A DNA stretch of 55,390 bases from a virus. This document shows, one piece after another, positions 3 through 15,474 of the stretch. The number at the start of each line of letters is the position of its first letter. Within the stretch, counting starts at the first letter, position 1. The notes under the pieces were generated by a model. The model was not told the origin of the DNA. It searched no databases and was given only the letters and a program-made list of their open reading frames with translations. Made by a program: the position numbers and the translations under genes. The stretch lies in IMG/VR virus record IMGVR_UViG_3300044984_002141, positions 1 through 55,390 of that record. One strand, 5' to 3'.

Positions 3-1040
3 AGCTTTATCATATCGTACTTACGTAGAGTATCACCTATAATGAATCAACCAAATCCTGGACCATATAATTTTTGGTTTGAAGGTAATGGTATGTCGTT
101 TGATGATTCATTTGCATCGTATAATTTATCTACAGAAGTGGATAACATTAATATCATCGATAACATAACAGTATATCATTTATATAACGCAAATAGAACG
201 ATGGATGTACATAAATTCATTAACCCAAAGATTGAGTCAGCTGAATTTGGTACGTTTGATATGAGCGATCCAGATGGATGTGAAATAACGCTAAACATAG
301 TTTACGATAGCTATTATCCACAGTTTGGTGTTATACCTGATGTACCAGCACCAGAACTTAATATTACTCAGTTAACAGCATCAACTATTGTTGAAGATAT
401 TAAGGTGAATGGCGCCAAAGATCTTAGTAATTTAACTAATAGTAGTAGCGGTACTTATAGCTACCAAACAGATGTAACTTATATTGATCCACTAAACAGT
501 TACGAAGGTTATCCCACAGTACAAGAGCAGCAAAAGCAGACTGGGCTAGATGGGTCGGATACAAACCTAGACGGTGTAGGGGATGATACGGTTGTAAGAG
601 ATACTGTTGTGAGTGATTATAACACTGAGCAGAATCAACCACTAGAACGTACAAATGCAGATACACCCGATGTGCAAGTATCATTCGATAAAATAGCGAG
701 TGATTATGTTGATACGAACCCAGCGCAGTTAACAGATATTGAAGCTACTACCTTATCTCAAGGTTTAGTAGATAATAATATCGATACTTCGTCTGCACTT
801 GGTGAGACAGCGGTTAGAGTAATAGCTAATAGCATTACACCTAATGATGAAACAATTGCTAATAAATTGTCAGTTGCATATTTTCCACCTGATCCAAATG
901 AAGTAGCTATGGTTGATCAAATGTTAGGTAAAACGTTTGTTCCACCAGCACAAGATCAAGTAGATATGGTAAATCAAATGATCGCTGATTATAAGGCAAG
1001 TTCCGGTATAGATATGTTGGACTTCAATGGGTCGTTTTAA
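3..1040 (+). CDS. Tail-tube-like (gp19/gp54-type?) protein with long acidic C-terminal extension, 5' end cut off
   Basis: The reading frame is open to the left edge with no stop, so the gene starts outside the window; the first internal ATG is at 42. The N-terminal 110 or so residues read like the end of a T4-type tail tube or tube-initiator domain (FINPKIESAEF followed by EITLNIVYDSYY, the strand pattern that closes such domains). This fits a position just before the gp4-like gene. The remaining 220 residues are acidic, Asn/Thr/Asp-rich and of low complexity. Near the end is a degenerate duplicated motif (PPDPNEVAMVDQML and PPAQDQVDMVNQMI). The last codons overlap the next gene by 14 bases. 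The tube assignment is an inference from short motifs; another baseplate or tail-completion role is possible. Confidence 0.4.
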   Translation, partial: SFIISYLRRVSPIMNQPNPGPYNFWFEGNGMSFDDSFASYNLSTEVDNINIIDNITVYHLYNANRTMDVHKFINPKIESAEFGTFDMSDPDGCEITLNIVYDSYYPQFGVIPDVPAPELNITQLTASTIVEDIKVNGAKDLSNLTNSSSGTYSYQTDVTYIDPLNSYEGYPTVQEQQKQTGLDGSDTNLDGVGDDTVVRDTVVSDYNTEQNQPLERTNADTPDVQVSFDKIASDYVDTNPAQLTDIEATTLSQGLVDNNIDTSSALGETAVRVIANSITPNDETIANKLSVAYFPPDPNEVAMVDQMLGKTFVPPAQDQVDMVNQMIADYKASSGIDMLDFNGSF

Positions 1041-1461
1041 ACAGGGGTTGTATAATCCCAAAAATCCTGATAAGTATATCGGAGATATTAAAAAAATCCG
1101 ATATATGTCATCATGGGAATTATCAATGCATTCATTTCTTGATAATAACTTAAAAATTATTAGGTGGAGCTCTGAAACTATTGCTGTACCATATGTAAAA
1201 CCAACTGATAATAAAATTCATCGATACTTTCCTGATTATTATGTGGAATATATTGATAAAAATAATAAAATGCGCAGACTTATTATTGAAGTTAAGCCGC
1301 ATAAGCAAACAAAAGTGTCGAGAGCACGCAACACTAAGAATAAAGTTTATGATGATATTCAATTAGCTGTTAATTTAGCTAAATGGAAAGCATGTACGGA
1401 GTTCTGTAATCATAATGGACTAGAATTTCAGATTATAACTGAAAAACAAATGTTCACTTAG
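1027..1461 (+). CDS. 4: Head completion protein, T4 gp4 family
   Basis: A 144-residue protein that closely follows the T4 gp4 head-completion family, which acts late in head maturation after DNA packaging and has a nuclease-like fold. The family signature is visible in order: NPDKYIGDIKKIRYMSSWEL near residues 13-32, WSSETIAVPYV near 47-57, HRYFPDYYVEY, then LIIEVKPHKQTK. The PD...E-x-K arrangement (PDYYVEY and IEVKP) resembles a PD-(D/E)xK nuclease core. The C-terminal AKWKACTEFC...FQIITEKQMF is also typical. The length matches the family (about 150 residues). It overlaps the preceding gene by 14 bases and lies just upstream of the terminase genes. Confidence 0.93.
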   Translation: MGRFKQGLYNPKNPDKYIGDIKKIRYMSSWELSMHSFLDNNLKIIRWSSETIAVPYVKPTDNKIHRYFPDYYVEYIDKNNKMRRLIIEVKPHKQTKVSRARNTKNKVYDDIQLAVNLAKWKACTEFCNHNGLEFQIITEKQMFT

Positions 1462-1504: not shown

Positions 1505-1924
1505 ATGTCTGGATCACTTAAGACTCACCCGTTTGAAAACATATTTGATATTGAATCAGGTACTACTTTGATTGAAACTCAAGCACTTGAAGTTATAAAC
1601 TCCACTACGTTTGATTTATACGATGAAAAAGATAAGGAAATTGAAGAACAGTATCAAACTGTGTATAATGCAGCATTTAACGCATTCTTATCTCAAGCAA
1701 ACGCTATGGATAGAGGAGCTGATCCTCGATATACACACTCAAATATGGAGGTTGCCAATCAATTCTTAGCGACCGCATTGCAAGCAGTTAAAGAAAAAGC
1801 CGATCTCAAGTACAAGAAAGAAAAAAACCAATCATCTAGTACAAAAAACATTACTAATAATAATCTTATCATTGATCGTAATGAATTACTAAAGCACTTA
1901 GGTGGGTTCACCCCGATAGAATAG
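1505..1924 (+). CDS. 16: Terminase small subunit, T4 gp16 family
   Basis: A 139-residue protein with the gp16-type central helical pair. DLYDEKDKEIEEQYQTVYNAAFNAF (residues 38-62) is followed by a second helix ending in EVANQFLATALQAVKEKADLK. In T4 this subunit forms the ring that regulates the large terminase motor and recognises DNA for packaging. The last 35 residues are Asn/Ser-rich, then a short helix (RNELLKHLGGFTP) that may contact the large subunit. It sits immediately before the large terminase gene, as in T4. The gap between the two contains a hairpin over the large-subunit ribosome binding site. Confidence 0.88.
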   Translation: MSGSLKTHPFENIFDIESGTTLIETQALEVINSTTFDLYDEKDKEIEEQYQTVYNAAFNAFLSQANAMDRGADPRYTHSNMEVANQFLATALQAVKEKADLKYKKEKNQSSSTKNITNNNLIIDRNELLKHLGGFTPIE

Positions 1925-1966: not shown

Positions 1967-2566
1967 ATGTCTAGGAACGAGTACTTAAAAAAGCCTGGAG
2001 AGCTGGTTGAATACACCACTGACATGGTACGTGAGTTACAGAAGTGTAGTGTAGACCCAGTTTATTTCATTGAAAATTACATAAAAATCACTCATCCGAC
2101 AAAAGGACTGGTGCCATTTATATTATACGATTTTCAACGTGTAATGGTAAAAACATTTCATGAAAATCGATTTTCAATAGCGTGTGCGAGCCGACAAGTA
2201 GGTAAATCACAAACCTCATGTGCATTTATCTTATGGTATGTGTCATTTCACTCACATAAAAACGTATTAATAGCATCAAATAAAGCTAGTGGTGCAAAAG
2301 AGATGTTAACTCGTATATCAGAGATGTACGAGAATCTACCAAAATTTTTAAAACCGGGTATTGATCCATCGAACTGGAACAAACTATCCATATCATTTGA
2401 CAATAACAGTAAAATTATATCAGAAGCAACTACATTAAATAGTGGTCGGGGTATGTCTATATCATTACTATTCTGCTTAGGTGGTGAAACTAATGTAACT
2501 GTACGTAATAAGCGTACTGGTGAGGTTAGTGTTGTTAGTTTAGAACAGCTGTATGGAGGATTATAG
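1967..2566 (+). CDS. 17: Terminase large subunit fragment 1 (ATPase N-terminal part) fused to split-intein N-half
   Basis: First of three genes that together encode the T4 gp17-type packaging motor. Residues 1-169 are the start of the ATPase domain: an adenine-binding/Q region (LYDFQRVMVK), Walker A SRQVGKS at 75-81, and the coupling region up to RGMSISLLF, which is the hydrophobic strand of Walker B. Cys170 starts a 30-residue intein N-half, CLGGETNVTV through LEQLYGGL, then a stop. The terminase sequence resumes at the exact next residue in the gene starting at 3437. Alone this polypeptide lacks the catalytic acidic pair, so it should be inactive until trans-spliced. AAGGA precedes the ATG by 6 bases. 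Confidence 0.92.
   Translation: MSRNEYLKKPGELVEYTTDMVRELQKCSVDPVYFIENYIKITHPTKGLVPFILYDFQRVMVKTFHENRFSIACASRQVGKSQTSCAFILWYVSFHSHKNVLIASNKASGAKEMLTRISEMYENLPKFLKPGIDPSNWNKLSISFDNNSKIISEATTLNSGRGMSISLLFCLGGETNVTVRNKRTGEVSVVSLEQLYGGL
2474..2563 (+). other. Split intein 1, N-half (30 residues)
   Basis: Begins with the nucleophile Cys (codon 2474-2476) in block A context CLGGETNVTV and runs to the stop at 2564. At 30 residues it is much shorter than the usual 100-residue N-half, matching the atypical split class known from AceL-TerL and VidaL inteins. Its partner is the 109-residue C-half at 3437-3763; together they are about 139 residues, a mini-intein size. Trans-splicing activity is inferred. 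Confidence 0.88.
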
Positions 2567-2568
2567 TA

Positions 2569-3444
2569 ATGTTTGAATGTATAGACAACAAATATAAAGT
2601 GTGGTATTTTGCACTAATACAAAAACGGATATTATCTCCGTGCACTGATAGCCACACAGAATCGCACCATATACAACCCAGAGCGCTAGGTGGAACAAAC
2701 TTACCCAACAACTTAGTACAGCTAAGTGTACGAGAACATATTGTTTGTCATCAAATGTTAGTAAAATTTTTAAAGCACCCGTTAGCAAAACAAAAAATGC
2801 TACTAGCGTTGCATTTCTTATGTCATGGGAGGCACAAGGTTGATGAACGCAAAACTATAATGAATAAATTTTCAAGTAGATTGTTAGCAGAGCTACGTAA
2901 AAATTTACATGAGCCTAAATCTGTAGAGACTCGTGAGCGTATGTCCATTGCACGCACTGGTATCAAGCGAAAATATGAGCACTACATGAAGGTTAACACA
3001 GATCCTGAAAAGATTCGCAAAACTGCGGAGTTTCACAGAGGTAGAAAGCGTAGTGCTCAAACAAAATATAAACAAAGTGTACGTAAAAAAGAGTTCTTAT
3101 CGGTGAATAACCCGTTCAATAAAGGTAAGAAACAGTACTATGATCCAACTAATAGTTTGAACACTGGTGTATATTTTTCAGGTAGTGAGCCAGCCGGGTG
3201 GATATTAGGTAATCAAAAAGCACGAGGTACTAAAACTTGCTATAGTTTAGAAACAGGTGAAGTTAAACGATTTGCGGTGGATAGCATACCAGCTGGGTGG
3301 TTCATCGGGCACCCTAATAATAAGGGGTATGAGATGTATATTAATATACATTCAAATCAACATAAACGGATAAAACCCACTGCGATACCATTATGTGGTG
3401 AATGGGTTCACTGGACTAAATTTAACGAGGTGCGCCATGCGTAG
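2569..3444 (+). CDS. HNH homing-type endonuclease between the halves of intein 1
   Basis: A 291-residue free-standing HNH nuclease. The catalytic motif is clear: SHHIQPRALGG at residues 32-42, Asn-Asn-Leu-Val at 47-50, and Arg-Glu-His at 55-57. Behind it are basic NUMOD3-like DNA-binding modules (RERMSIARTGIKRKY, then GRKRSAQTKYKQSVRKK) and two PAGW(I/F)-containing C-terminal segments (EPAGWILG, IPAGWFIG). The gene starts 2 bases after the stop of terminase fragment 1. Its GGAGG (2555-2559) lies inside the intein N-half coding sequence. Its last 8 bases overlap the start of fragment 2. It probably promotes homing of the split intein into terminase genes that lack it, by cutting the uninterrupted site; this role is inferred from position. 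Confidence 0.88.
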   Translation: MFECIDNKYKVWYFALIQKRILSPCTDSHTESHHIQPRALGGTNLPNNLVQLSVREHIVCHQMLVKFLKHPLAKQKMLLALHFLCHGRHKVDERKTIMNKFSSRLLAELRKNLHEPKSVETRERMSIARTGIKRKYEHYMKVNTDPEKIRKTAEFHRGRKRSAQTKYKQSVRKKEFLSVNNPFNKGKKQYYDPTNSLNTGVYFSGSEPAGWILGNQKARGTKTCYSLETGEVKRFAVDSIPAGWFIGHPNNKGYEMYINIHSNQHKRIKPTAIPLCGEWVHWTKFNEVRHA

Positions 3445-3763
3445 TAATACAGAATATGAAATTTTATCACCAGATGGTCATTTTTATGATTTTAAAGGTG
3501 TAATTCAATCAACTAAAACCCTACATCAAATTAAGATACAAGATGGTGATGATATATGGGCGTCAGATAATCATATATTCTTTGTAAATGGTATTGCTAC
3601 TAAAGTGAGTAATTTGAGTGATTATGGATTCATTGATTCTATTGATGGTCCAATCGCGTATCAAAAAACATTCAATTATAACATCACTTATGCATATGAT
3701 GTAGTTGAATGTCAAGAAGAAGATCATTTATATACAATTAATAGTAGCATTATAACCCATAAC
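3437..3763 (+). other. Split intein 1, C-half (109 residues)
   Basis: Ends with THN followed by Cys+1 (TGT, 3764-3766), the standard C-terminal splice junction. Block B is visible as SDNH at residues 43-46, with Ser for the usual Thr of TxxH. Block F is visible in YAYDVVE...HLYTINSSIITHN. There is no endonuclease domain. All residues needed for splicing appear to be present when paired with the N-half at 2474-2563. Confidence 0.9.
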
Positions 3764-4129
3764 TGTGATGAGTTTGCATTTGTCGCCAATAATATTAGTG
3801 AGCATTTTTGGACTTCAATAAGTCCTACACTATCAACCGGTGGTAATTGTATTATCGCAAGCACACCTAATGGTGATGATAACTTGTATGCTGAGTTATG
3901 GCGTGGTGCTGAAAGTGGAGCTAATGGGTTTACACCTATATTTGTTAAATGGGATACAGTTCCTGGGCGAGATGAGCGATTTAGAGAGCAAGAAATTGCA
4001 AAGATTGGTCTCACAAAATTTCAACAAGAATATGAATGTCTGCGAGGTGATACATTAGTTACAATTTTAGATTCGTTCAACACAGAACGCACATTAACGC
4101 TTAAGGAATTATATGATGAATTTGAGTAA
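3437..4129 (+). CDS. 17: Terminase large subunit fragment 2: intein 1 C-half, middle extein, intein 2 N-half
   Basis: A 230-residue polypeptide with three parts. Residues 1-109 are the intein 1 C-half. Residues 110-200 are terminase: CDEFAFV carrying the Walker B/catalytic Asp-Glu at 111-112, and the coupling motif STPNG near 142-146, ending at TKFQQEYE. Residues 201-230 are the intein 2 N-half. I chose the ATG at 3437 because GAGGTG (3427-3432) precedes it by 4 bases and it overlaps the stop of the HNH gene, suggesting coupled translation. A longer open frame from 3395 has no such signal. The order C-half, extein, N-half is the layout used in artificial protein circularisation. The fragment has the ATPase catalytic acids but no Walker A. 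Confidence 0.92.
   Translation: MRSNTEYEILSPDGHFYDFKGVIQSTKTLHQIKIQDGDDIWASDNHIFFVNGIATKVSNLSDYGFIDSIDGPIAYQKTFNYNITYAYDVVECQEEDHLYTINSSIITHNCDEFAFVANNISEHFWTSISPTLSTGGNCIIASTPNGDDNLYAELWRGAESGANGFTPIFVKWDTVPGRDERFREQEIAKIGLTKFQQEYECLRGDTLVTILDSFNTERTLTLKELYDEFE
4037..4126 (+). other. Split intein 2, N-half (30 residues)
   Basis: Cys at codon 4037-4039 begins block A (CLRGDTLVTI) directly after the terminase motif FQQEYE. It runs for 30 residues to the stop at 4127. It has the same length as the intein 1 N-half and a similar block A, so the two inteins are related. Its partner is the C-half at 5020-5349. Confidence 0.88.
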
Positions 4130-5033
4130 TATTTCTAATCTATTAGCTCAAAAATATGTTATTTCTCCATTAGATGGCAACCAGTATTGTAGAGCAAACG
4201 GATACTTTAAGCGTCACTTACACGACAACGGATTTAATTCATACCATGAGTTTTTTAGATCTATGTATCCAACACTAATACAGCATTGTAAATTTTGTGG
4301 TGTTGAGTGTTCATTTAATAATACAACTATGCAATATAAAATTACATGTGGCGACAGAAAGTGTCAAGGTAAGTTAACATCAGAAATTCTTGCAAGTAGG
4401 GATGATAATTATTGGCCTACAGTGCTATCTCGCAGGTATGAAACGATTAGTAGTCAACCTATTGAATATAAACGTAAAATAATAGAAAAACGTGTGGCTG
4501 AGTGTATTGCGCGGGGTTCTTATCAAAAAGCAGTTGCGGTACGTGAGCAAACATGTTTATTGCGTTACGGTGATAGTAAGTATAATAATAGCACTCAAAT
4601 ATCTAAATCAAAATTAAATTGGACTCCAGAGCGTAAAGCACTATACCATGAACGGTTTTTACAAACCACAGGAGGTAAAAAGCTATACGAGTTTCACACC
4701 ACTGAAACCTGGTATAATAGGTCTATTCGATTACACGAGAGAGGATTAGCGGTTCATCCAGATGAGAGATCAGCCTTACGGTTATATCGGCTTGCAGTTC
4801 AAAGATTAACTGAACAAAATTATAAACAGCATAAGCATATTATTAATCCAAATAATTATACACGAGCAACTAAAAAAGATTGTGAATTAGCATATCACTT
4901 AGATCATATTATACCGATCGTATACGGGTTTGCGCACAATATACCGGTTGATACTATTGCATCGGTTGACAATCTACAGATGTTACACTATAAAGAAAAT
5001 ATTTCAAAAGGAGCTAAGTATGTCAGCATTTAG
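4113..5033 (+). CDS. HNH homing-type endonuclease between the halves of intein 2
   Basis: A 306-residue nuclease of a different type from the one in intein 1. The HNH core is at the C-terminus: HLDHIIP at 262-268, DNLQML at 286-291, and N296 with SKG at 298-300. Near the N-terminus there is a Cys cluster (C59, C62, C66, C79, C84) that could bind zinc. The centre contains TCLLRYGDSKYNNSTQISKSK-like sequence, resembling the LRYG-x-x-N modules of phage homing enzymes. AAGGA at 4103-4107 precedes the ATG by 5 bases, inside the intein N-half. The gene overlaps fragment 2 by 17 bases and fragment 3 by 14 bases. It probably mobilises intein 2. Confidence 0.85.
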   Translation: MMNLSNISNLLAQKYVISPLDGNQYCRANGYFKRHLHDNGFNSYHEFFRSMYPTLIQHCKFCGVECSFNNTTMQYKITCGDRKCQGKLTSEILASRDDNYWPTVLSRRYETISSQPIEYKRKIIEKRVAECIARGSYQKAVAVREQTCLLRYGDSKYNNSTQISKSKLNWTPERKALYHERFLQTTGGKKLYEFHTTETWYNRSIRLHERGLAVHPDERSALRLYRLAVQRLTEQNYKQHKHIINPNNYTRATKKDCELAYHLDHIIPIVYGFAHNIPVDTIASVDNLQMLHYKENISKGAKYVSI

Positions 5034-5349
5034 AGCTAATAATAAAGGGTATCAAATTAAAACACCATATGGATATGAGCCTTTTGCTGGTATATCAATG
5101 AATGGTGTTAAACCAGTTATAAAATTATCGTTATCTAACGGTAAAACAATCACTGGTACCGAAAACCATATCTTATTCACCTCAGATAAATTAGAACGAT
5201 GTATAGGTAATATTAAAATTGATGATGTGCTTGATGGGATAGTACACACGACTGTTACCGGTGTTGTCGCTGATGGAAGTGCTGAAGTCTTTGATGTAAT
5301 TGAAGTACCATCTCATACATTTTATGCAAACAGTGTTGTTAGCCACAAC
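5020..5349 (+). other. Split intein 2, C-half (110 residues)
   Basis: Ends VVSHN before Cys+1 (5350-5352). Block B is TENH (TxxH) at residues 47-50, and block F is EVFDVIEVPSHTFYANSVVSHN. No endonuclease domain is present. With its 30-residue N-half it would form an intein of about 140 residues. Confidence 0.9.
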
Positions 5350-6138
5350 TGTCATTTTATTAGTAATGACCCGTTATTGTTTAGTTCTATCGGGCTTAGT
5401 AATTATTTTGTTACAGAGATGCCTGCACCTGATGCTAGGGGGATTGTATTCTTTGAACCAATTGAATACGGTAAAACATATTTAATAGCTATGGATCCAG
5501 CAACAGGCACTGGAAGTGATTACACTGTTATAGTAATGTATAGTTTTCCAGATATGGTGCAAATTGCAGAATATCGAGCAAACACTGTTTCATCACCTGC
5601 GGTGTATCATGTACTCAAATATCTACTTAAACTACTTGAAAAATCTAGAGCTGCTAACGCTTATTGGAGTCTAGAAAATAATGGTGTCGGTGAAGGTATC
5701 ATTAGCATGTATGAATCTGATGAAAATCCTGCTGAATTTGGTGAACTTGTATCTGAAGCTGGTAGACGTAGAATAGGCTTTACAACTGGTAAAAATAAAG
5801 CTAAGCATTGTATGACTTTTAAGAATTTATTTGAAGCCGGTAAGATTATTGTGCGTTCACGTAATACTATCTCAGAAATGAAGAATTATATACGTAAAAA
5901 TGGATCATATGCAGCTAGAGTAGGTAGTACAGACGATACAATTTCAGCACACTTAATTTTAATTAGAATATTAGAAGAGATTACATCATACGAAGATCAA
6001 GCGTATGATATCATGTATAAAGATGAATTCTTAAACGAATTTGATAATAATGAAGAGCAATGGGAAGAACCAGCTCCTATCGTGACTAGTAATGATTTTA
6101 ACGAAGCGGATATGTTCAAGCACCTAGAAATGTGGTAA
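5020..6138 (+). CDS. 17: Terminase large subunit fragment 3: intein 2 C-half fused to nuclease domain
   Basis: A 372-residue polypeptide. Residues 1-110 are the intein 2 C-half. From Cys111 (CHFISNDPLLF) it is the terminase C-terminal part. The RNase H-like nuclease motifs are visible: AMDPATGTGSDYTVI with Asp159 and Asp167, ENNGVGEG with Glu219, and STDDTISAHL with Asp305-306. I chose the start at 5020 because AGGAG (5009-5013) precedes it by 6 bases; the open frame extends back to 4930 without a signal. The three exteins (169, 91 and 262 residues) sum to about 522 residues, somewhat shorter than T4 gp17 (610). Residue-by-residue continuity at both junctions matches gp17. Confidence 0.93.
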   Translation: MSAFRANNKGYQIKTPYGYEPFAGISMNGVKPVIKLSLSNGKTITGTENHILFTSDKLERCIGNIKIDDVLDGIVHTTVTGVVADGSAEVFDVIEVPSHTFYANSVVSHNCHFISNDPLLFSSIGLSNYFVTEMPAPDARGIVFFEPIEYGKTYLIAMDPATGTGSDYTVIVMYSFPDMVQIAEYRANTVSSPAVYHVLKYLLKLLEKSRAANAYWSLENNGVGEGIISMYESDENPAEFGELVSEAGRRRIGFTTGKNKAKHCMTFKNLFEAGKIIVRSRNTISEMKNYIRKNGSYAARVGSTDDTISAHLILIRILEEITSYEDQAYDIMYKDEFLNEFDNNEEQWEEPAPIVTSNDFNEADMFKHLEMW

Positions 6139-7739: not shown

Positions 7740-9140
7740 ATGACGACGAATACACTTACTATTAATTACACTGATACCACCAAATCTAGTATACAGATAC
7801 CACTCGGTGGAATTAACACGTCAACACCATTATCGTTATATGGACTTGGCACAACAAATTATGGTGCAGACTTGTGGGCTAATATGCTGCACCTAATGGA
7901 GAATTTCTGTAATTCGACACCTCCATCAAATCCTGTTATCGGTCAATTATTTTACAAATCCACCACTAAAACTCTTCAGTTATACACTGGGCTAAACGCT
8001 AGCGGATTAGCAAACTGGGTTACATTAATAACAATAGATCCAGCTAGTACCACAGGTAATGCATTTGCTACATACTTACCACTAGCTGGTGGTATCATAA
8101 CTGGTGATTTAATTTTAACAACAGAGTTTACAAACATAAATACAGTTAAGCCTGGACTAAATGAAAATCGTGCCGCAACTATAAGATACGTGGATTCGCT
8201 ATTAGCTGGCTTTTCATTACAAAACACAACCGCTATTACAAATACTGTTAAACAAGCTACAGATTTACCATTTATTTACACTGGTAGTACTGCAACATTA
8301 GCGCAAAGAACGATGGGTGCACCATTAAAATTACCATCAGAAGGTTATGGTAGTGATGGTAGATTATTAGTTGCAAATGTAACTACGCCGACTAATGAAT
8401 TATTTGCAGCAACTAGAAAGTACGTTGATGCAAAAGTAGCTACAATTATTCCAGGTGTTGCAAACACGGTAACTACAGCAACATTATCTGCAGAAATTAA
8501 AAAACTAACAGATTTACCATTTGTATATAACAATATATTAGTGGGAGAAGTTTCAAGTCGTATAGCGTCTATGACGATGAAATCTGATTTGATATTACCC
8601 GCGTATGCAACTGGTACGTCCGCTAAAGTTAGTTATGTAAATCATGCTGCAACAAGAGCATATGTTGATGATTCTATATACGGGTTATCTACTACAATTA
8701 CAAGCTATATTGATACAAACATGCCTGACATGTCTGCATTATTATATGGTAGTCAAATTACTTCTAATCAAAACATATCGCACACATCATACTTAGTTGT
8801 TGGTGATCATATATCGGTCACTGGTGTTGCACAATGTTCGATATATCCCAAACCTGCGACAGCAACAGCTGATGAAAGAATATATTACTACGCATTAATA
8901 CCATTTAGTGATATATTACCGCAATCTGTTACATTCTCACATCACAAGTACTCAGTTCAAGCAGATTTTGCGGATATAGATTTAGTACCATATGGTCGGC
9001 AGCCATACAGTAATTCATTTTTATATAAAAAATTAAATACATCACTAATTATCTACTTATTAGTTGCACCGACTACTACAGCATTAGCCACTGCATTTGT
9101 ACCAACCGCGTTTAGCTTTACGATTAACGGGACCAAATAA
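7740..9140 (+). CDS. Fibre-like virion protein, array A member 1
   Basis: A 466-residue protein. The N-terminal 85 residues form the array A module: TPLSLYGLGTTNYGADLW, HLMENFCNSTPPSNP, then IGQLFYKSTTKTLQLY. This module is common in marine phage tail and fibre proteins. Three copies of the fibre-stem motif AATxxYVD follow (AATIRYVD, AATRKYVD, AATRAYVD), then a unique beta-rich C-terminus of about 130 residues likely to form the distal tip. There is no strong Shine-Dalgarno sequence. Its stop overlaps the next start (TAATG). Host receptor binding is inferred from architecture. Confidence 0.65.
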   Translation: MTTNTLTINYTDTTKSSIQIPLGGINTSTPLSLYGLGTTNYGADLWANMLHLMENFCNSTPPSNPVIGQLFYKSTTKTLQLYTGLNASGLANWVTLITIDPASTTGNAFATYLPLAGGIITGDLILTTEFTNINTVKPGLNENRAATIRYVDSLLAGFSLQNTTAITNTVKQATDLPFIYTGSTATLAQRTMGAPLKLPSEGYGSDGRLLVANVTTPTNELFAATRKYVDAKVATIIPGVANTVTTATLSAEIKKLTDLPFVYNNILVGEVSSRIASMTMKSDLILPAYATGTSAKVSYVNHAATRAYVDDSIYGLSTTITSYIDTNMPDMSALLYGSQITSNQNISHTSYLVVGDHISVTGVAQCSIYPKPATATADERIYYYALIPFSDILPQSVTFSHHKYSVQADFADIDLVPYGRQPYSNSFLYKKLNTSLIIYLLVAPTTTALATAFVPTAFSFTINGTK

Positions 9141-11704
9141 TGACGACGAATAATAATTACCTTATAGCATATAGTAACACTACTAAACCAAGTATCAACT
9201 TAACACCTGGGCAGATAGATGCAACAAGTACATCATTAACATTGTTTGGGTATGGTGCTAAAGAGTACGGTAAAGGACTAATGTCTAATACAGTAAAATT
9301 ATTAGAAAATTTTTGCAATACAACCGCACCTAATAACCCAATTGAGGGTCAATTATGGTTTAATTCGAGCACAGCTACATTAAATGTATGCTACCGGGCA
9401 ACTGGTGGGTCGTTGAGCTGGAAATCAGTTGCGCCAGTAGGTGGATGGGACAGTACTGGTGGATCTACGACTAGTTCAATTACTGTCGAGAGTGGTGCTG
9501 CAACTAAAGCAGATCTCAGTTCGTATATACCGATCAATGGACTCATCGGTAATATGGCTACTGGTAGTATGACGGGTGATTTAAAGTTGTACAATAACCC
9601 AAATTGGTATACTACAAATGCTCAAGGATTAACTGTAATTAACGAAGCGGTTACAGCAGATTTAAGTAACTGTGCTGCAACTAGAAAATATGTAGATCTT
9701 AAAGTAGGTAGCGTCGTTGTTGCTCAAAATAAAGCGACTGATTGGAATGTAACACCTGCTCAATTAATAACAATGATTGAAAGTGGTGCTAGCCCGTACA
9801 TAAAACGTGTTGCAACTAACCCAACTGATAATGTAATGGTTAGTCCATTAATTTTACGTAATCAATCAAACCCACAAACAGTTGGTTTATATGAGGCGGT
9901 AAATAAACAATATGTTACCTCTGTGGCTGAATCTATTGTAACTGGTATGAGTACTGGGACAGGTACAGTGCCACAGTATATCAAGGATTTATTATTAGGT
10001 TATGTACCAATTGCAGGTATTAGTAACAGTAGCTTTACAGGAATTACTTCTCATTTACCTGTGCTTGATGAACCTAGTTGGTACAATGCTGATGGAACAT
10101 TAAGCCTTACTGCTAAGATTCCCAACAACTACGCTGCAACTATAAGATACGTTAATACTAAGGTAGCTGACGCACTTAAATCAACAGGTGGTGGTATTAA
10201 TTGGCCTGTATCGTCATCAGTAGTTATTGCAAAGATTAATGAAGATGCTGGTGGTGGACCGTATATACATAAGAACTCTACAGATGCTGGGTTCCGCACC
10301 ATGGCTAAACAATTGTTTTTGCGGTCAGATCAGACAGCTGATAATGTGGTTGATAAGGAGGCTGTGAGTGCTGGCGTTGTACGTACACTAATAAACAATA
10401 GTAAGCCTACAGATATAGATAGTGCAAAGTTGTTAGCTGCATTAAACGCATTACCAGCCGCAGTTAAACCGTGGCCTACTCAAACAAATCAACAAGCATC
10501 CATTGATACAACTGAGTTAGATAAGGCGACTAAAGCTGCAAATGAAGCCGCTAAAGCCGCTGCTGATGCGTTATCAGAATTAAAGAAGGCAGATTCAAAT
10601 GACGCGGACACGCTTGACAAGCTCATTAAGAATGCAGAGGCCGCTACAAAAGCTGCAAATGAAGCTGCCGGAGCTGTTAATAAAGCTGCAACCGATGCCG
10701 CAGGTAAAGCAGTTGTAACAACACCAGGTATCGACACAGTATCAAGCGGTTTGACAGATCTAATTGGGCAAGCAAATGAAGCTGCAAGACTCGCAAATGA
10801 AGCAATAAAAACTGAAGCAGCTGGTACTGATACGTTAACTAAGTTAATAAAAGATGCAGAAGCTGCTGCGCAAAAAGTAACTGATGCGATAGCATTAGCA
10901 GGTAGGACGACTATTACGACAAATACCACGAGTGGTGTTGATGTAAGTGGGTGGAACAACACAACTGTATCACCTACACTAGCAGATACTTATACGCAGG
11001 CTGGTAAAGTGTATATGAAGGATCGTGAGCGGATATCATATTCAAAATTACCAGATGGCACATTAATAATCTCAGGTTATTATCGTAAATTTGGTCTGTG
11101 CCACGCTGGTGATGCTGTTGATTGGGTAACCTCCATAGATAAAATTAGATTTCCATCTGGATATAATTTTATTGATCCGTTTTACTCTGTTACAATTACA
11201 GAGGTGTCTCATAACACCCGTTGTGCTGATCAAATAGTTGGATCTAGTGATGCTAGACATAGAGGTGGTTTCTGGGATGGTTCACTTGCTCGTGATGGCT
11301 GGTATAACTGGCCGGGGGCTGCGTTGCTTAATTGCGATATTGGTCGAACATATACCGCAGCTCAACTAGCTCCCTACCCACAGGGTCCAAGATATCCATG
11401 GGCTGAAACAAAAAATGAATCATTCCCGACAGGTACTGCTCATCCATCAAGTGATCCTCCTGCTGATTTTGAACCGTATATATATTATCAGCCAAGCGAT
11501 ATTCTAGGTGTAACATATAACAATGAGGTTAAGAGATTTAACTCGTTGTATAACGAGTTTGCTGTACCGCCATGTACTTGGATGTCGTATGATCAAGCTA
11601 CAGATGGGTTTAAAATAAGTGGCTGCGTGAACAAGGCTGTTACCTGGCTATACGCACGCAACACGTTATCGTGTAATTTCACCGCAATCGGTAGATGGAA
11701 ATAA
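9140..11704 (+). CDS. Large fibre-like virion protein with Ala-rich coiled coil, array A member 2
   Basis: 854 residues, the largest of the six array A paralogs. The N-terminal module (TSLTLFGYGAKEYGKG, KLLENFCNTTAPNNP, EGQLWFNSSTATLNV) is followed by AATRKYVD/AATIRYVN stem motifs. An Ala/Lys/Glu-rich segment spans about residues 453-595 (repeats such as AATKAANEAAGAVNKAA) and is probably a long trimeric coiled coil. The last 240 residues are unique, rich in Tyr/Trp/Pro and probably the receptor-binding head. Start and stop are coupled to its neighbours (TAATG overlap upstream, 3 bases to the next gene). Confidence 0.65.
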   Translation: MTTNNNYLIAYSNTTKPSINLTPGQIDATSTSLTLFGYGAKEYGKGLMSNTVKLLENFCNTTAPNNPIEGQLWFNSSTATLNVCYRATGGSLSWKSVAPVGGWDSTGGSTTSSITVESGAATKADLSSYIPINGLIGNMATGSMTGDLKLYNNPNWYTTNAQGLTVINEAVTADLSNCAATRKYVDLKVGSVVVAQNKATDWNVTPAQLITMIESGASPYIKRVATNPTDNVMVSPLILRNQSNPQTVGLYEAVNKQYVTSVAESIVTGMSTGTGTVPQYIKDLLLGYVPIAGISNSSFTGITSHLPVLDEPSWYNADGTLSLTAKIPNNYAATIRYVNTKVADALKSTGGGINWPVSSSVVIAKINEDAGGGPYIHKNSTDAGFRTMAKQLFLRSDQTADNVVDKEAVSAGVVRTLINNSKPTDIDSAKLLAALNALPAAVKPWPTQTNQQASIDTTELDKATKAANEAAKAAADALSELKKADSNDADTLDKLIKNAEAATKAANEAAGAVNKAATDAAGKAVVTTPGIDTVSSGLTDLIGQANEAARLANEAIKTEAAGTDTLTKLIKDAEAAAQKVTDAIALAGRTTITTNTTSGVDVSGWNNTTVSPTLADTYTQAGKVYMKDRERISYSKLPDGTLIISGYYRKFGLCHAGDAVDWVTSIDKIRFPSGYNFIDPFYSVTITEVSHNTRCADQIVGSSDARHRGGFWDGSLARDGWYNWPGAALLNCDIGRTYTAAQLAPYPQGPRYPWAETKNESFPTGTAHPSSDPPADFEPYIYYQPSDILGVTYNNEVKRFNSLYNEFAVPPCTWMSYDQATDGFKISGCVNKAVTWLYARNTLSCNFTAIGRWK

Positions 11705-11707
11705 TCT

Positions 11708-12376
11708 ATGGCTATTATAGATATTGTATTATCAGATAAAAGTAAGAGTAGCGTAAAATCTACATCAATTAGTAGCATGAAGTATGTAGATTTTACATCT
11801 GCAAACTATGGTGCTGATTTTTGGAGTAATATACTACGATTAACAGAGAATTATAGTAGTGTTAACCCACCTAATTTTCCAATTGAGGGCCAGCTGTGGT
11901 TTAATCCCAACACATTTGCACTTAATGTTGCCACTGTCGATGCAAATAAAAACGTAGTATGGACTATAGTTAGTGATGTATACGACGATACAACTGTAGG
12001 TTATATTGATCGATATAAGCGTAATATTATTCTCAACATATCTGTACCAGCAACAACAGAGCCTACTATCTACGATGGACCGTATAAAACTAGTAATCAT
12101 GCTGCTACAAAGAAATTTGCAGATGAATGGCATGGTGGTATTGTACACGGTAGCGATAAGATATGTAATTGGAATATATTTCCAAACAAGTACTGTATTA
12201 TAAACGGAAATGCTGGGGGAGCCATCAAGCTACCATTTACTATGTTTGATACAAACTACGCAGTAATTTTAACTAATATCGATACTGCGAGTACATCACA
12301 ATACGCATCTAGCAAAACCACAACAGGTTTTTACGCCTCAAACAATTCATGGATGGTGGTAGGTTATAAAGCATGA
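11708..12376 (+). CDS. Short fibre-like virion protein, array A member 3
   Basis: 222 residues. It has the array A N-terminal module (YVDFTSANYGADFW, LTENYSSVNPPNFP, EGQLWFNPNTFALNV) and one stem motif (AATKKFAD). The C-terminal 70-residue beta domain (LPFTMFDTNYAVILTN through TTTGFYASNNSWMVVGY) resembles the gp53-like fibre C-terminal domain. The stop overlaps the next ATG (ATGA). It is a short version of the same design as its neighbours, with the long stem missing. Confidence 0.6.
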   Translation: MAIIDIVLSDKSKSSVKSTSISSMKYVDFTSANYGADFWSNILRLTENYSSVNPPNFPIEGQLWFNPNTFALNVATVDANKNVVWTIVSDVYDDTTVGYIDRYKRNIILNISVPATTEPTIYDGPYKTSNHAATKKFADEWHGGIVHGSDKICNWNIFPNKYCIINGNAGGAIKLPFTMFDTNYAVILTNIDTASTSQYASSKTTTGFYASNNSWMVVGYKA

Positions 12377-13845: not shown

Positions 13846-15474
13846 ATGCCATATTCAATTACCCACACTAATAATGGTAGCGGTGGGGTTACCATCATAT
13901 TAGATGATAATCAAGTCGACGAGTCTACCTCGCTTACACTACTCGGTAGAGGTCATCCAAACTACGGTCAAGTACTATGGACTGATTTTATAAAGCTATT
14001 AGAAAATTTTTACGGTCCTACTCAACCATCAAATCCAATTACCGGTCAATTGTGGTATAATAGTAATACAAATTCAATATACGTTAATAAAATCACTGCA
14101 GGTGCTGTAACTGGTGGCAACATAGCGGCGTCTAATGGTAGTCAATGGTCTCCACTTGCAGATCACGCATACCTTGCAACTAACTATAACCCTACCACTC
14201 TTGTAAATAATTCAGTAGATGGATTAGTACAACGTTTATCTGGCTCGGACCCAAATGTAAAGTCTGCATTATTAACCTTACTTACTGGTACATATTTACC
14301 AATAGCTGGTGGTACAATAACTGGTAGATTGCAAGTACCGCAACTGGTACCGGGATCAGCTAATGACCCTGAGTTAACAGCTAATCAATATCTAGCGGTT
14401 GGCTGGCTCAATATGAAAAACTACGTAATTAAGTACGTGGGAGATGAATTACTAACAGTTAAGTCTAGATTGCAAGCACTTGAATCAGCTGGTACGGGAA
14501 CAGGTACTGGTACAGGTACTGTACCATCAGCTGGTTCTGCACTATCTGGGTTTGAAAACCTATCATACGGTATTGGATACGATCCAAGTGGTAGTACTAC
14601 AAACTATGTGCGCAGCGTTGGTGCGGTAGCTACATCAAAAGCATCATCTACTCAATGGATCAACACTAACTTATCAGTTCCACCCATCGATCTTGGTGAT
14701 GTAGATAATGCCCATGATAGTTATGCAACACCTAAAAGTTATGTTGATGGTAAAATTACAGCAGGTACTTTGCTCGCAAGCAGCACACAAGTTTTTACCA
14801 CCACCCAAACTGCAGCTAGAGCTATTAAACTACCGGTATTTCCAGAGGCTGTGTTACCTGGTGGTACGGAAAATACAAATGTTAATTACGATCAATATGC
14901 AGTTACTAAAAAGTATGTAGATGTTGGTTTATCTGGTGCTAATTTAACAAAAATCTTGAGCAAAAGTCAAGATTTTAGAAATAGTTTATCGGGTATAGCA
15001 TCTGGTGCGCTAGCAATACCATCAATTCCTATAACAAACTTCAGTGGAAAAGTATTAGCAATTAACTCGTCTGGATCTGCATTAGAATGGATTGCATCAT
15101 CCACTCCAGTTACTAATACAATTGGATTTAGTAGTTCAAGTTATATTAAGCAAAGTAACAACATGGTTACGGTGTTTGGTGCGGTAGCTGCATCCACACT
15201 AAGACGAAGTGCTAACGTGTTTAGTAATAATATTCAACCATGGGAAGTTACTATAATTATACCTAACAACTTTACACTAAGTGTTCCATATGATGTACAT
15301 GCAACATTTACTCCAAACCCGGCAGCGCAATCGTCCACCGGATTTGTAGGTACAATGAATTGTTATATTACGGCAATGACTGCAACAAGTTTTACATTAG
15401 GTATTATCTGTAATCCTGCAGCATTAACAAGTGATAAAATTGCATACACTATTAACGGCTTAGTTACAAACTAG
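13846..15474 (+). CDS. Fibre-like virion protein, array A member 6
   Basis: 542 residues. The N-terminal module (TSLTLLGRGHPNYGQVLW, KLLENFYGPTQPSNP, TGQLWYNSNTNSIYV) is followed by stem motifs (YATPKSYVD, YAVTKKYVD). A Gly-Thr linker (GTGTGTGTGTVPS near residue 220) resembles the shorter STGTGTVP linker in member 2. The C-terminus (INTNL..., SSSYIKQSNNMVTVFGAVAAS, then PNNFTLSVPYDVHATF) is a fibre-tip-type beta domain. It is the last gene of the first rightward operon. Its 3' end overlaps the convergent gene by 11 bases. Confidence 0.62.
   Translation: MPYSITHTNNGSGGVTIILDDNQVDESTSLTLLGRGHPNYGQVLWTDFIKLLENFYGPTQPSNPITGQLWYNSNTNSIYVNKITAGAVTGGNIAASNGSQWSPLADHAYLATNYNPTTLVNNSVDGLVQRLSGSDPNVKSALLTLLTGTYLPIAGGTITGRLQVPQLVPGSANDPELTANQYLAVGWLNMKNYVIKYVGDELLTVKSRLQALESAGTGTGTGTGTVPSAGSALSGFENLSYGIGYDPSGSTTNYVRSVGAVATSKASSTQWINTNLSVPPIDLGDVDNAHDSYATPKSYVDGKITAGTLLASSTQVFTTTQTAARAIKLPVFPEAVLPGGTENTNVNYDQYAVTKKYVDVGLSGANLTKILSKSQDFRNSLSGIASGALAIPSIPITNFSGKVLAINSSGSALEWIASSTPVTNTIGFSSSSYIKQSNNMVTVFGAVAASTLRRSANVFSNNIQPWEVTIIIPNNFTLSVPYDVHATFTPNPAAQSSTGFVGTMNCYITAMTATSFTLGIICNPAALTSDKIAYTINGLVTN

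What the first reader, a model, noticed from the sequence alone, without database searches (positions are those of the whole stretch)
1967..6138. Large terminase encoded by three genes joined by two tandem split inteins
The gp17-type terminase is interrupted at two points. Each break shows a 30-residue intein N-half (Cys start, block A) followed by a stop, and a 109-110-residue C-half (TxxH-like block B, HN/Cys end) at the start of the next terminase gene. The exteins join at exact residues to give about 522 continuous residues with all ATPase and nuclease motifs. Single atypical split inteins in TerL are known (AceL-TerL); two in one motor gene, needing an ordered three-piece assembly, is not something I know to be described.
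Basis: partly seen in the sequence, partly recalled or inferred. Interest (0 to 1): 0.96.

Follow-up and report, generated by a model that had tools for sequence, protein, structure and literature searches.

The report
Phage packaging motor doubly fractured by split inteins
In this bacterial virus the gene for the DNA-packaging motor is broken into three pieces by two unrelated split inteins (protein 'self-gluing' elements), each with its own endonuclease gene lodged in the gap; the parts are of known kinds, but two such breaks in one essential gene, with a second viral lineage and unbroken relatives to compare, is unusual and easy to test at the bench.

Summary
TerL exteins of 169, 91 and 262 aa (1967-2473, 3764-4036, 5350-6135) join to 522 aa that align without a break at the joints to intact T4-type terminase and gp17 in the PDB (E=6e-58). 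Each break holds a 30-aa intein N-half ending in a stop, and a 109/110-aa C-half with its own start codon. Both rejoined inteins score >100 bits against a profile of relatives' inteins, versus at most 8.4 for 1,000 shuffles. Assembly error is excluded by two other contigs, one with 43 SNPs and no indels. Intein lineages follow the site, not the genome. Relatives show each site empty, fused or split in different combinations. A second lineage is also doubly split; its joined exteins match an uninterrupted relative in length (529 codons, dN/dS about 0.04). Trans-splicing itself is inferred. New variant of a known kind; no doubly fractured gene was found in the held literature, but the founding paper (Dassa 2009) could not be read.

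The parts
1967..2473 (+). TerL extein 1 (169 aa): N-terminal ATPase part with Walker A (SRQVGKSQ), up to the Walker B strand (..SISLLF)
   Evidence: PHROG terminase 5e-56; aligned to XacN1; gp17 in PDB
2474..2566 (+). Split intein 1, N-half (30 aa, CLGGETNVTV..GGL) plus stop TAG, followed at once by TAA
   Evidence: TIGR01445 20.6 bits when joined to its C-half, below the curated cut-off 24.5
2569..3444 (+). Stand-alone HNH homing-endonuclease gene HEG1 (291 aa, MobE-like), in the gap of intein 1
   Evidence: phrog_655 homing endonuclease 4.9e-29; weak Pfam HNH, below cut-off; 37% identical over 272 aa to the ORF at the same site in L148
3437..3763 (+). Split intein 1, C-half (109 aa; block B SDNH; ends ITHN), own ATG and SD-like GAGG
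   Evidence: TIGR01443 above cut-off; Cat intein 6dsl 1.7e-5 for the joined intein
3764..4036 (+). TerL extein 2 (91 aa): +1 Cys, Walker B acids (CDE), STPNG motif
   Evidence: phrog_36964; alignment to XacN1
4037..4129 (+). Split intein 2, N-half (30 aa, CLRGDTLVTI..DEFE) plus stop TAA
   Evidence: TIGR01445 29.0 bits, above cut-off, for the joined intein
4113..5033 (+). Stand-alone HNH-type endonuclease gene HEG2 (306 aa), overlapping the end of IN2 and the start of IC2
   Evidence: phrog_5104 6e-12, weak matches to HNH/endonuclease VII families, no Pfam match; 46% identical over 296 aa to the ORF at the same site in L114
5020..5349 (+). Split intein 2, C-half (110 aa; block B TENH; ends VSHN), own ATG and SD-like AGGAG
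   Evidence: Intein_splicing 2.4e-7 for the joined intein; Cat 6dsl 3e-7 and VidaL 6vgv in the PDB; HINT-like model
5350..6138 (+). TerL extein 3 (262 aa) and stop: RNase H-like nuclease with acids in DPATG, LENNG and TDDT
   Evidence: PF17289 3.6e-10; acids invariant in 8 sequences; model hits gp17 3cpe 4.7e-10
1505..1924 (+). Probable terminase small subunit directly upstream
   Evidence: phrog_445 E=0.0038, weak; position

Best explanation
A T4-type terL gene was invaded at two positions by two separate intein lineages, and each intein is now split by an endonuclease gene lodged after about 30 residues. The five overlapping ORFs (TerL-N/IN1, HEG1, IC1/TerL-M/IN2, HEG2, IC2/TerL-C) are probably translated from one message. 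IN1 binds IC1 and IN2 binds IC2. Each pair folds into a HINT domain and trans-splices by the class 1 route (Cys1, terminal Asn, Cys+1), giving a 522-residue TerL. Joint 1 lies inside Walker B, so no fragment holds a complete ATPase site and the motor should be inactive until the pieces are joined. Each endonuclease probably spreads its element by cutting terL alleles empty at that site. Shown: gene anatomy, motifs, families, recurrence and purifying selection on the exteins in relatives. Inferred: trans-splicing, pairing fidelity and endonuclease activity.
For: Exact joints against intact TerL and gp17. Joined inteins match intein models, Cat and VidaL, and exceed 1,000 shuffles. All three assemblies have the same frames. 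An endonuclease ORF fills each gap; all five ORFs have SD-like motifs. Inteins group by site (49% and 42-44%) rather than by genome (27%), and each HEG family stays with its site. Relatives: site 1 empty with site 2 split plus HEG (L114); site 1 split plus HEG with site 2 fused (L148); both split (L149); both empty (L162). The joined exteins of L149 equal the intact L162 TerL in length (529 codons, 94% aa, dN 0.038, dS 0.87); L148 versus L114 gives extein dN 0.057, dS 0.95 and IC2 dN 0.11, dS 0.94. No Rfam intron match.
Against: No splicing or protein data. The window is a 55-kb fragment of a virus whose nearest named relatives by TerL have genomes above 300 kb, so a second, intact terL elsewhere is not excluded. 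Intein 1 is below the Pfam Intein_splicing threshold and below the TIGR01445 cut-off. HEG2's endonuclease assignment is weak (no Pfam match). A SNP-poor tract over the inteins (1 versus 13 expected) is not specific, since 8564-12135 is similarly poor in SNPs.
Confidence: 0.88

Rival explanations
1. The three TerL pieces are not spliced but assemble non-covalently into a working motor, as the split NrdA of some T4-like phages works without splicing after a mobE insertion; the intein halves would serve only as docking tags.
For: Genes-in-pieces that work without splicing are known in phages (cited in PMC3322345 and PMC10448857). Intein halves bind each other tightly (general knowledge).
Against: All class 1 splicing residues are kept at both sites (Cys1, block B His, terminal Asn, +1 Cys). 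IC2 itself is under purifying selection between relatives (dN 0.11, dS 0.94). Relatives keep fused inteins at the same two positions, which must splice to give TerL.
Confidence: 0.06
2. Decayed terminase: the gene is a pseudogene and another terL does the work.
For: The window is incomplete, so the rest of the genome is unseen.
Against: All Walker A/B and nuclease acids are present. Between the window and L002 the terL pieces differ at 9 sites with 1 aa change. Between relatives extein dN/dS is about 0.04-0.06.
Confidence: 0.03
3. RNA-level splicing: the gaps are group I/II introns with endonuclease ORFs, as in ICP1 and Jug-phage terL.
For: terL RNA introns are common in phages (PMC10448857, PMC12363816).
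Against: No Rfam intron match at gathering or at E<=1. The gap edges encode complete intein halves at both sites, which an RNA intron would not need.
Confidence: 0.02
4. Assembly or sequencing error created the stops.
For: The record is a metagenome assembly.
Against: Same frames in two further contigs, one with 43 SNPs and no indel. Each gap is a 0.9-kb ORF, not a point defect; related viruses are broken at the same residues.
Confidence: 0.01

Closest known systems
Fractured genes (Dassa et al. 2009, NAR 37:2560; not held, known from citing papers and general knowledge)
   Same: An essential phage gene broken by a split intein with a free-standing endonuclease gene between the halves.
   Different: Here the same gene is fractured twice, at two sites, by two unrelated intein lineages with two different endonuclease families. 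Whether Dassa et al. list a doubly fractured gene could not be checked.
AceL-TerL, GOS-TerL and Cat-TerL atypical split inteins (PMC11766414)
   Same: Host gene TerL; short IntN (25, 37, 30 aa) and long IntC (104-115 aa); +1 Cys. The Cat C-half (6dsl) is the best PDB sequence match of both joined inteins.
   Different: Described one per gene. The intein-2 site is probably the AceL site (judged from memory); intein 1 sits inside Walker B.
Aeromonas phage PX29 gp17A/17B, Providencia phage PSTRCR_127, Serratia phage 92A1
   Same: gp17 split near the second joint by an atypical intein; a GIY-YIG-like part fused to the C-half (PX29) or a free ORF between the halves.
   Different: One break only; the joint is within a few residues of site 2.
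Vibrio phage VP-1 and Salicola phage SCTP-2 TerL
   Same: Two inteins in one TerL, one of them split.
   Different: The other intein is fused (cis) and at a different position; SCTP-2's N-part is about 39 kb away on the other strand.
MIJ3 PolB and AceL NrdHF fractured genes (PMC6892783, PMC7891396)
   Same: Split intein with an HNH or GIY-YIG gene between the halves in phage or phage-like DNA.
   Different: Other host genes; one break each.

Membership tests
T4 gp17-type large terminase | N-terminal ATPase domain with Walker A and Walker B | tested here: met
   Terminase_6N 3.4e-17 on the joined 522 aa; gp17 3ezk 5.9e-58
T4 gp17-type large terminase | C-terminal RNase H-like nuclease with three acids | tested here: met
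   PF17289 8.1e-10; acids invariant in 8 sequences; model matches 3cpe and 3c6h
Inteins (HINT, class 1) | Cys/Ser1, block B TxxH, penultimate His and terminal Asn, Cys/Ser/Thr+1 | tested here: met
   Both sites: Cys1, SDNH/TENH, HN, Cys+1; intein 2 above the TIGR01445 cut-off, both above TIGR01443
Inteins (HINT, class 1) | HINT fold | tested here: inconclusive
   IC2 part of a medium-confidence model (mean pLDDT 69) matches VidaL 3.2e-5 and Cat 4.7e-5; IC1 not modelled
Atypical TerL split inteins | Natural split with short IntN and IntC of about 100 aa | tested here: met
   30/109 and 30/110 aa
Atypical TerL split inteins | Trans-splicing activity | not testable with these tools
   Needs protein expression
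Fractured gene arrangement | Conserved gene broken by a split intein with a free-standing endonuclease gene between the halves | tested here: met
   HEG1: phrog_655 4.9e-29; HEG2: weaker. Met at site 1, probable at site 2
Homing endonuclease | Cuts the intein-less allele | not testable with these tools
   Empty-site alleles exist in relatives (L114 site 1; L162 both sites), cleavage not tested
Group I/II intron | Conserved intron RNA structure in the gap | tested here: not met
   No Rfam match at gathering or E<=1

The most novel reading that the evidence does not exclude
A natural, obligatory three-piece motor: two mutually orthogonal split inteins, kept in at least two distant phage lineages, make packaging ATPase activity depend on two trans-splicing events. 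Wrong pairing would give a TerL lacking extein 2 or a circular extein 2, so orthogonality would have been selected, and the double break could act as a timing gate on packaging.
Probability: 0.15. Interest if true: 0.78.

Novelty: new variant of a known kind. Interest (0 to 1): 0.57.

Why it matters
It shows that one essential gene can carry two split inteins at once, each with its own endonuclease, in viruses whose broken terL remains under strong purifying selection. The related alleles (empty, fused and split at each site, in different combinations) make the long-discussed route from fused intein to fractured gene directly traceable in one gene. It also supplies two natural atypical split inteins that must tolerate each other in the same cell, which is useful for three-segment protein assembly if they prove orthogonal.

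Tried and rejected
SNP desert as proof of recent homing: the intein and HEG segments differ at 1 site versus 13 expected between the window and L002, but extending the alignment to 12.1 kb shows another tract with few SNPs (47 mismatches in all, 4 of them after 8563), so it was not used. Campylobacter phage hits spanning IC1 to IN2 looked like a double split, but CP81 is broken once, at DE|CAF, with no intein at site 2. RNA introns: none. Origin of one intein by copying of the other: rejected, because sequences group by site. Dassa 2009 could not be read. Literature searches for doubly split genes found only engineered systems, plus 'interrupted by two inteins' for PhoH and NrdA of phage IBB_35, with no split stated in that passage (PMC3322345). 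AlphaFold of the C-terminal piece gave medium confidence only. Natural Cys at the +1 position: 53 of 92 uninterrupted TerL at site 2 but 2 of 92 at site 1, so site 1 is not explained by a pre-existing Cys in most relatives; that count includes near-duplicate contigs.
Full report
WHAT IS THERE. The stretch 1967-6138 holds five ORFs on the + strand that abut or overlap: 1967-2566, 2569-3444, 3437-4129, 4113-5033 and 5020-6138. The first, third and fifth carry the large terminase: extein 1 (169 aa), extein 2 (91 aa) and extein 3 (262 aa). Joined, they make 522 aa that align to the uninterrupted TerL of Xanthomonas phage XacN1 with no gap at either joint, score 63.3 bits for Terminase_6N and 39.3 for Terminase_6C, and match T4 gp17 structures at E=5.9e-58. 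The extein-1 end and extein-2 end are each followed by 30 residues starting with Cys and then a stop. At the first break there are two stops in a row, TAG TAA, so read-through is unlikely. The third and fifth ORFs start with 109 and 110 residues ending in His-Asn before Cys+1.

INTEINS. Joined, intein 2 matches the Pfam intein model (2.4e-7, slightly below the curated score) and passes the NCBIfam N- and C-terminal splicing models. Intein 1 passes the C-terminal model and falls short of the N-terminal one. In the PDB the consensus atypical intein Cat (6dsl) is the best sequence match of both, and VidaL is among those of intein 2. A profile built only from relatives' TerL inteins gives 109.8 and 102.3 bits; the best of 1,000 shuffles gives 8.4, and no other frame of the window exceeds 8.1. 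The model of the third polypeptide (8 sequences, mean pLDDT 69) matches gp17 nuclease (4.7e-10) and, more weakly, VidaL and Cat.

ENDONUCLEASES. HEG1 matches phage homing endonucleases (phrog_655, 4.9e-29). HEG2 has weaker matches to HNH and endonuclease VII families. HEG1 and HEG2 are not detectably related. All five ORFs have a Shine-Dalgarno-like motif before the ATG. This is the fractured-gene arrangement, twice in one gene.

NOT AN ARTEFACT. Two further IMG/VR contigs carry the same locus without indels, with 6 and 43 SNPs. In the five ORFs, window and L002 differ at 10 sites, with one amino-acid change in TerL and one in HEG1.

RELATIVES SHOW THE STATES SEPARATELY. L114/L115/L113 (67% TerL): site 1 empty (..SLLFADEF), site 2 split with a HEG2 homologue. 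L148: site 1 split with a HEG1 homologue, site 2 fused with no endonuclease. L149/L161 and L160 (two metagenomes): both sites split; a different, Vsr-like endonuclease (REase_MTES_1575, below its cut-off) at site 1, and a truncated HEG2 relative fused to IN2 at site 2. L162: both sites empty, one 529-aa TerL, from the same metagenome code as L160. L120 and L127: site 1 fused, the second break split. Inteins group by site, not genome, so two lineages appear to have invaded separately.

SELECTION. The joined exteins of the doubly split L149 have the same length as the intact L162 gene (529 codons), 94% aa identity, dN 0.038, dS 0.87. L148 against L114: exteins dN 0.057, dS 0.95; IC2 dN 0.11, dS 0.94. 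The broken genes are therefore maintained. In L149 against L162, the roughly 550 bp ending at site 1 is 96% identical while other flanks are 76-87%, as expected from co-conversion on homing, though this is one pair only.

MECHANISM. Most likely each pair trans-splices by the class 1 route to give one TerL. Joint 1 lies in Walker B, so extein 1 has Walker A, extein 2 the Walker B acids, and extein 3 the nuclease; no piece has a whole ATPase site. Order is not required, but pairing fidelity is: IN1 with IC2 would drop extein 2, and IN2 with IC1 would circularise it. The two N-halves share 8 of 30 residues. GOS-TerL and AceL-TerL N-halves are reported interchangeable (PMC11766414), so orthogonality is not to be assumed. 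Splicing itself is inferred, not shown.

NOVELTY. Single split TerL inteins and fractured genes with endonucleases between halves are known (PMC11766414, PMC7891396, PMC6892783), also in named phages such as PX29, annotated as N-intein and C-intein. Two fractures in one gene were not found in the held literature, but the founding paper is not held. I file it as a new variant of a known kind.

Noticed in passing
L117/L151 (Campylobacter phage CP81, NC_042112.1 125323-125862 versus about 102-103 kb); L119/L152 (Salicola phage SCTP-2, 256.7 kb versus 216-218 kb): TerL halves encoded far apart: the N-part lies about 22 kb (CP81) or 39 kb on the opposite strand (SCTP-2) from the part that begins with an intein C-half. 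In CP81 the N-part was read and ends in an intein N-half; in SCTP-2 this rests on the alignment alone.
   Followed up: partly
L149:4024-5028: Intein 2 N-half runs in frame into about 80 residues of a HEG2-like protein and then stops: a decayed endonuclease with the split intein left behind.
   Followed up: partly
L162:4487-5425, L149:816-1744, L024:2700-3722: ORFs directly upstream of terL look like a degenerate copy of the TerL ATPase half (Walker A-like motif altered, e.g. QPRKAGLTT in L024). Possible TerL paralogue or regulator.
   Followed up: no
L086 (SRB7757), L117 (CP81), L085 (VP-1), L119 (SCTP-2), L093/L098-L103: TerL is a hot spot for inserts: interruptions near Walker A, at DE|CAF, at F|CDE, in extein 2 and at QE(Y/H)E|C in different phages, some of them fused inteins, some split.
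   Followed up: partly
window 9140-11704 and 13846-15474: Two long ORFs share the same N-terminal domain (phrog_15511/phrog_14394, virion structural), and DNA at 9299, 12490 and 13997 all matches one stretch of a relative's locus: repeated structural, perhaps tail-fibre, genes.
   Followed up: no
window 1027-1461: Head-closure protein family with a TnsA-like endonuclease match (phrog_218 3e-47; PF08722 6.5e-21).
   Followed up: no
window 8564-12135: Only 4 SNPs in 3.6 kb against the L002 contig, versus 43 in the preceding 8.6 kb: mosaic of recently exchanged tracts between strains.
   Followed up: partly
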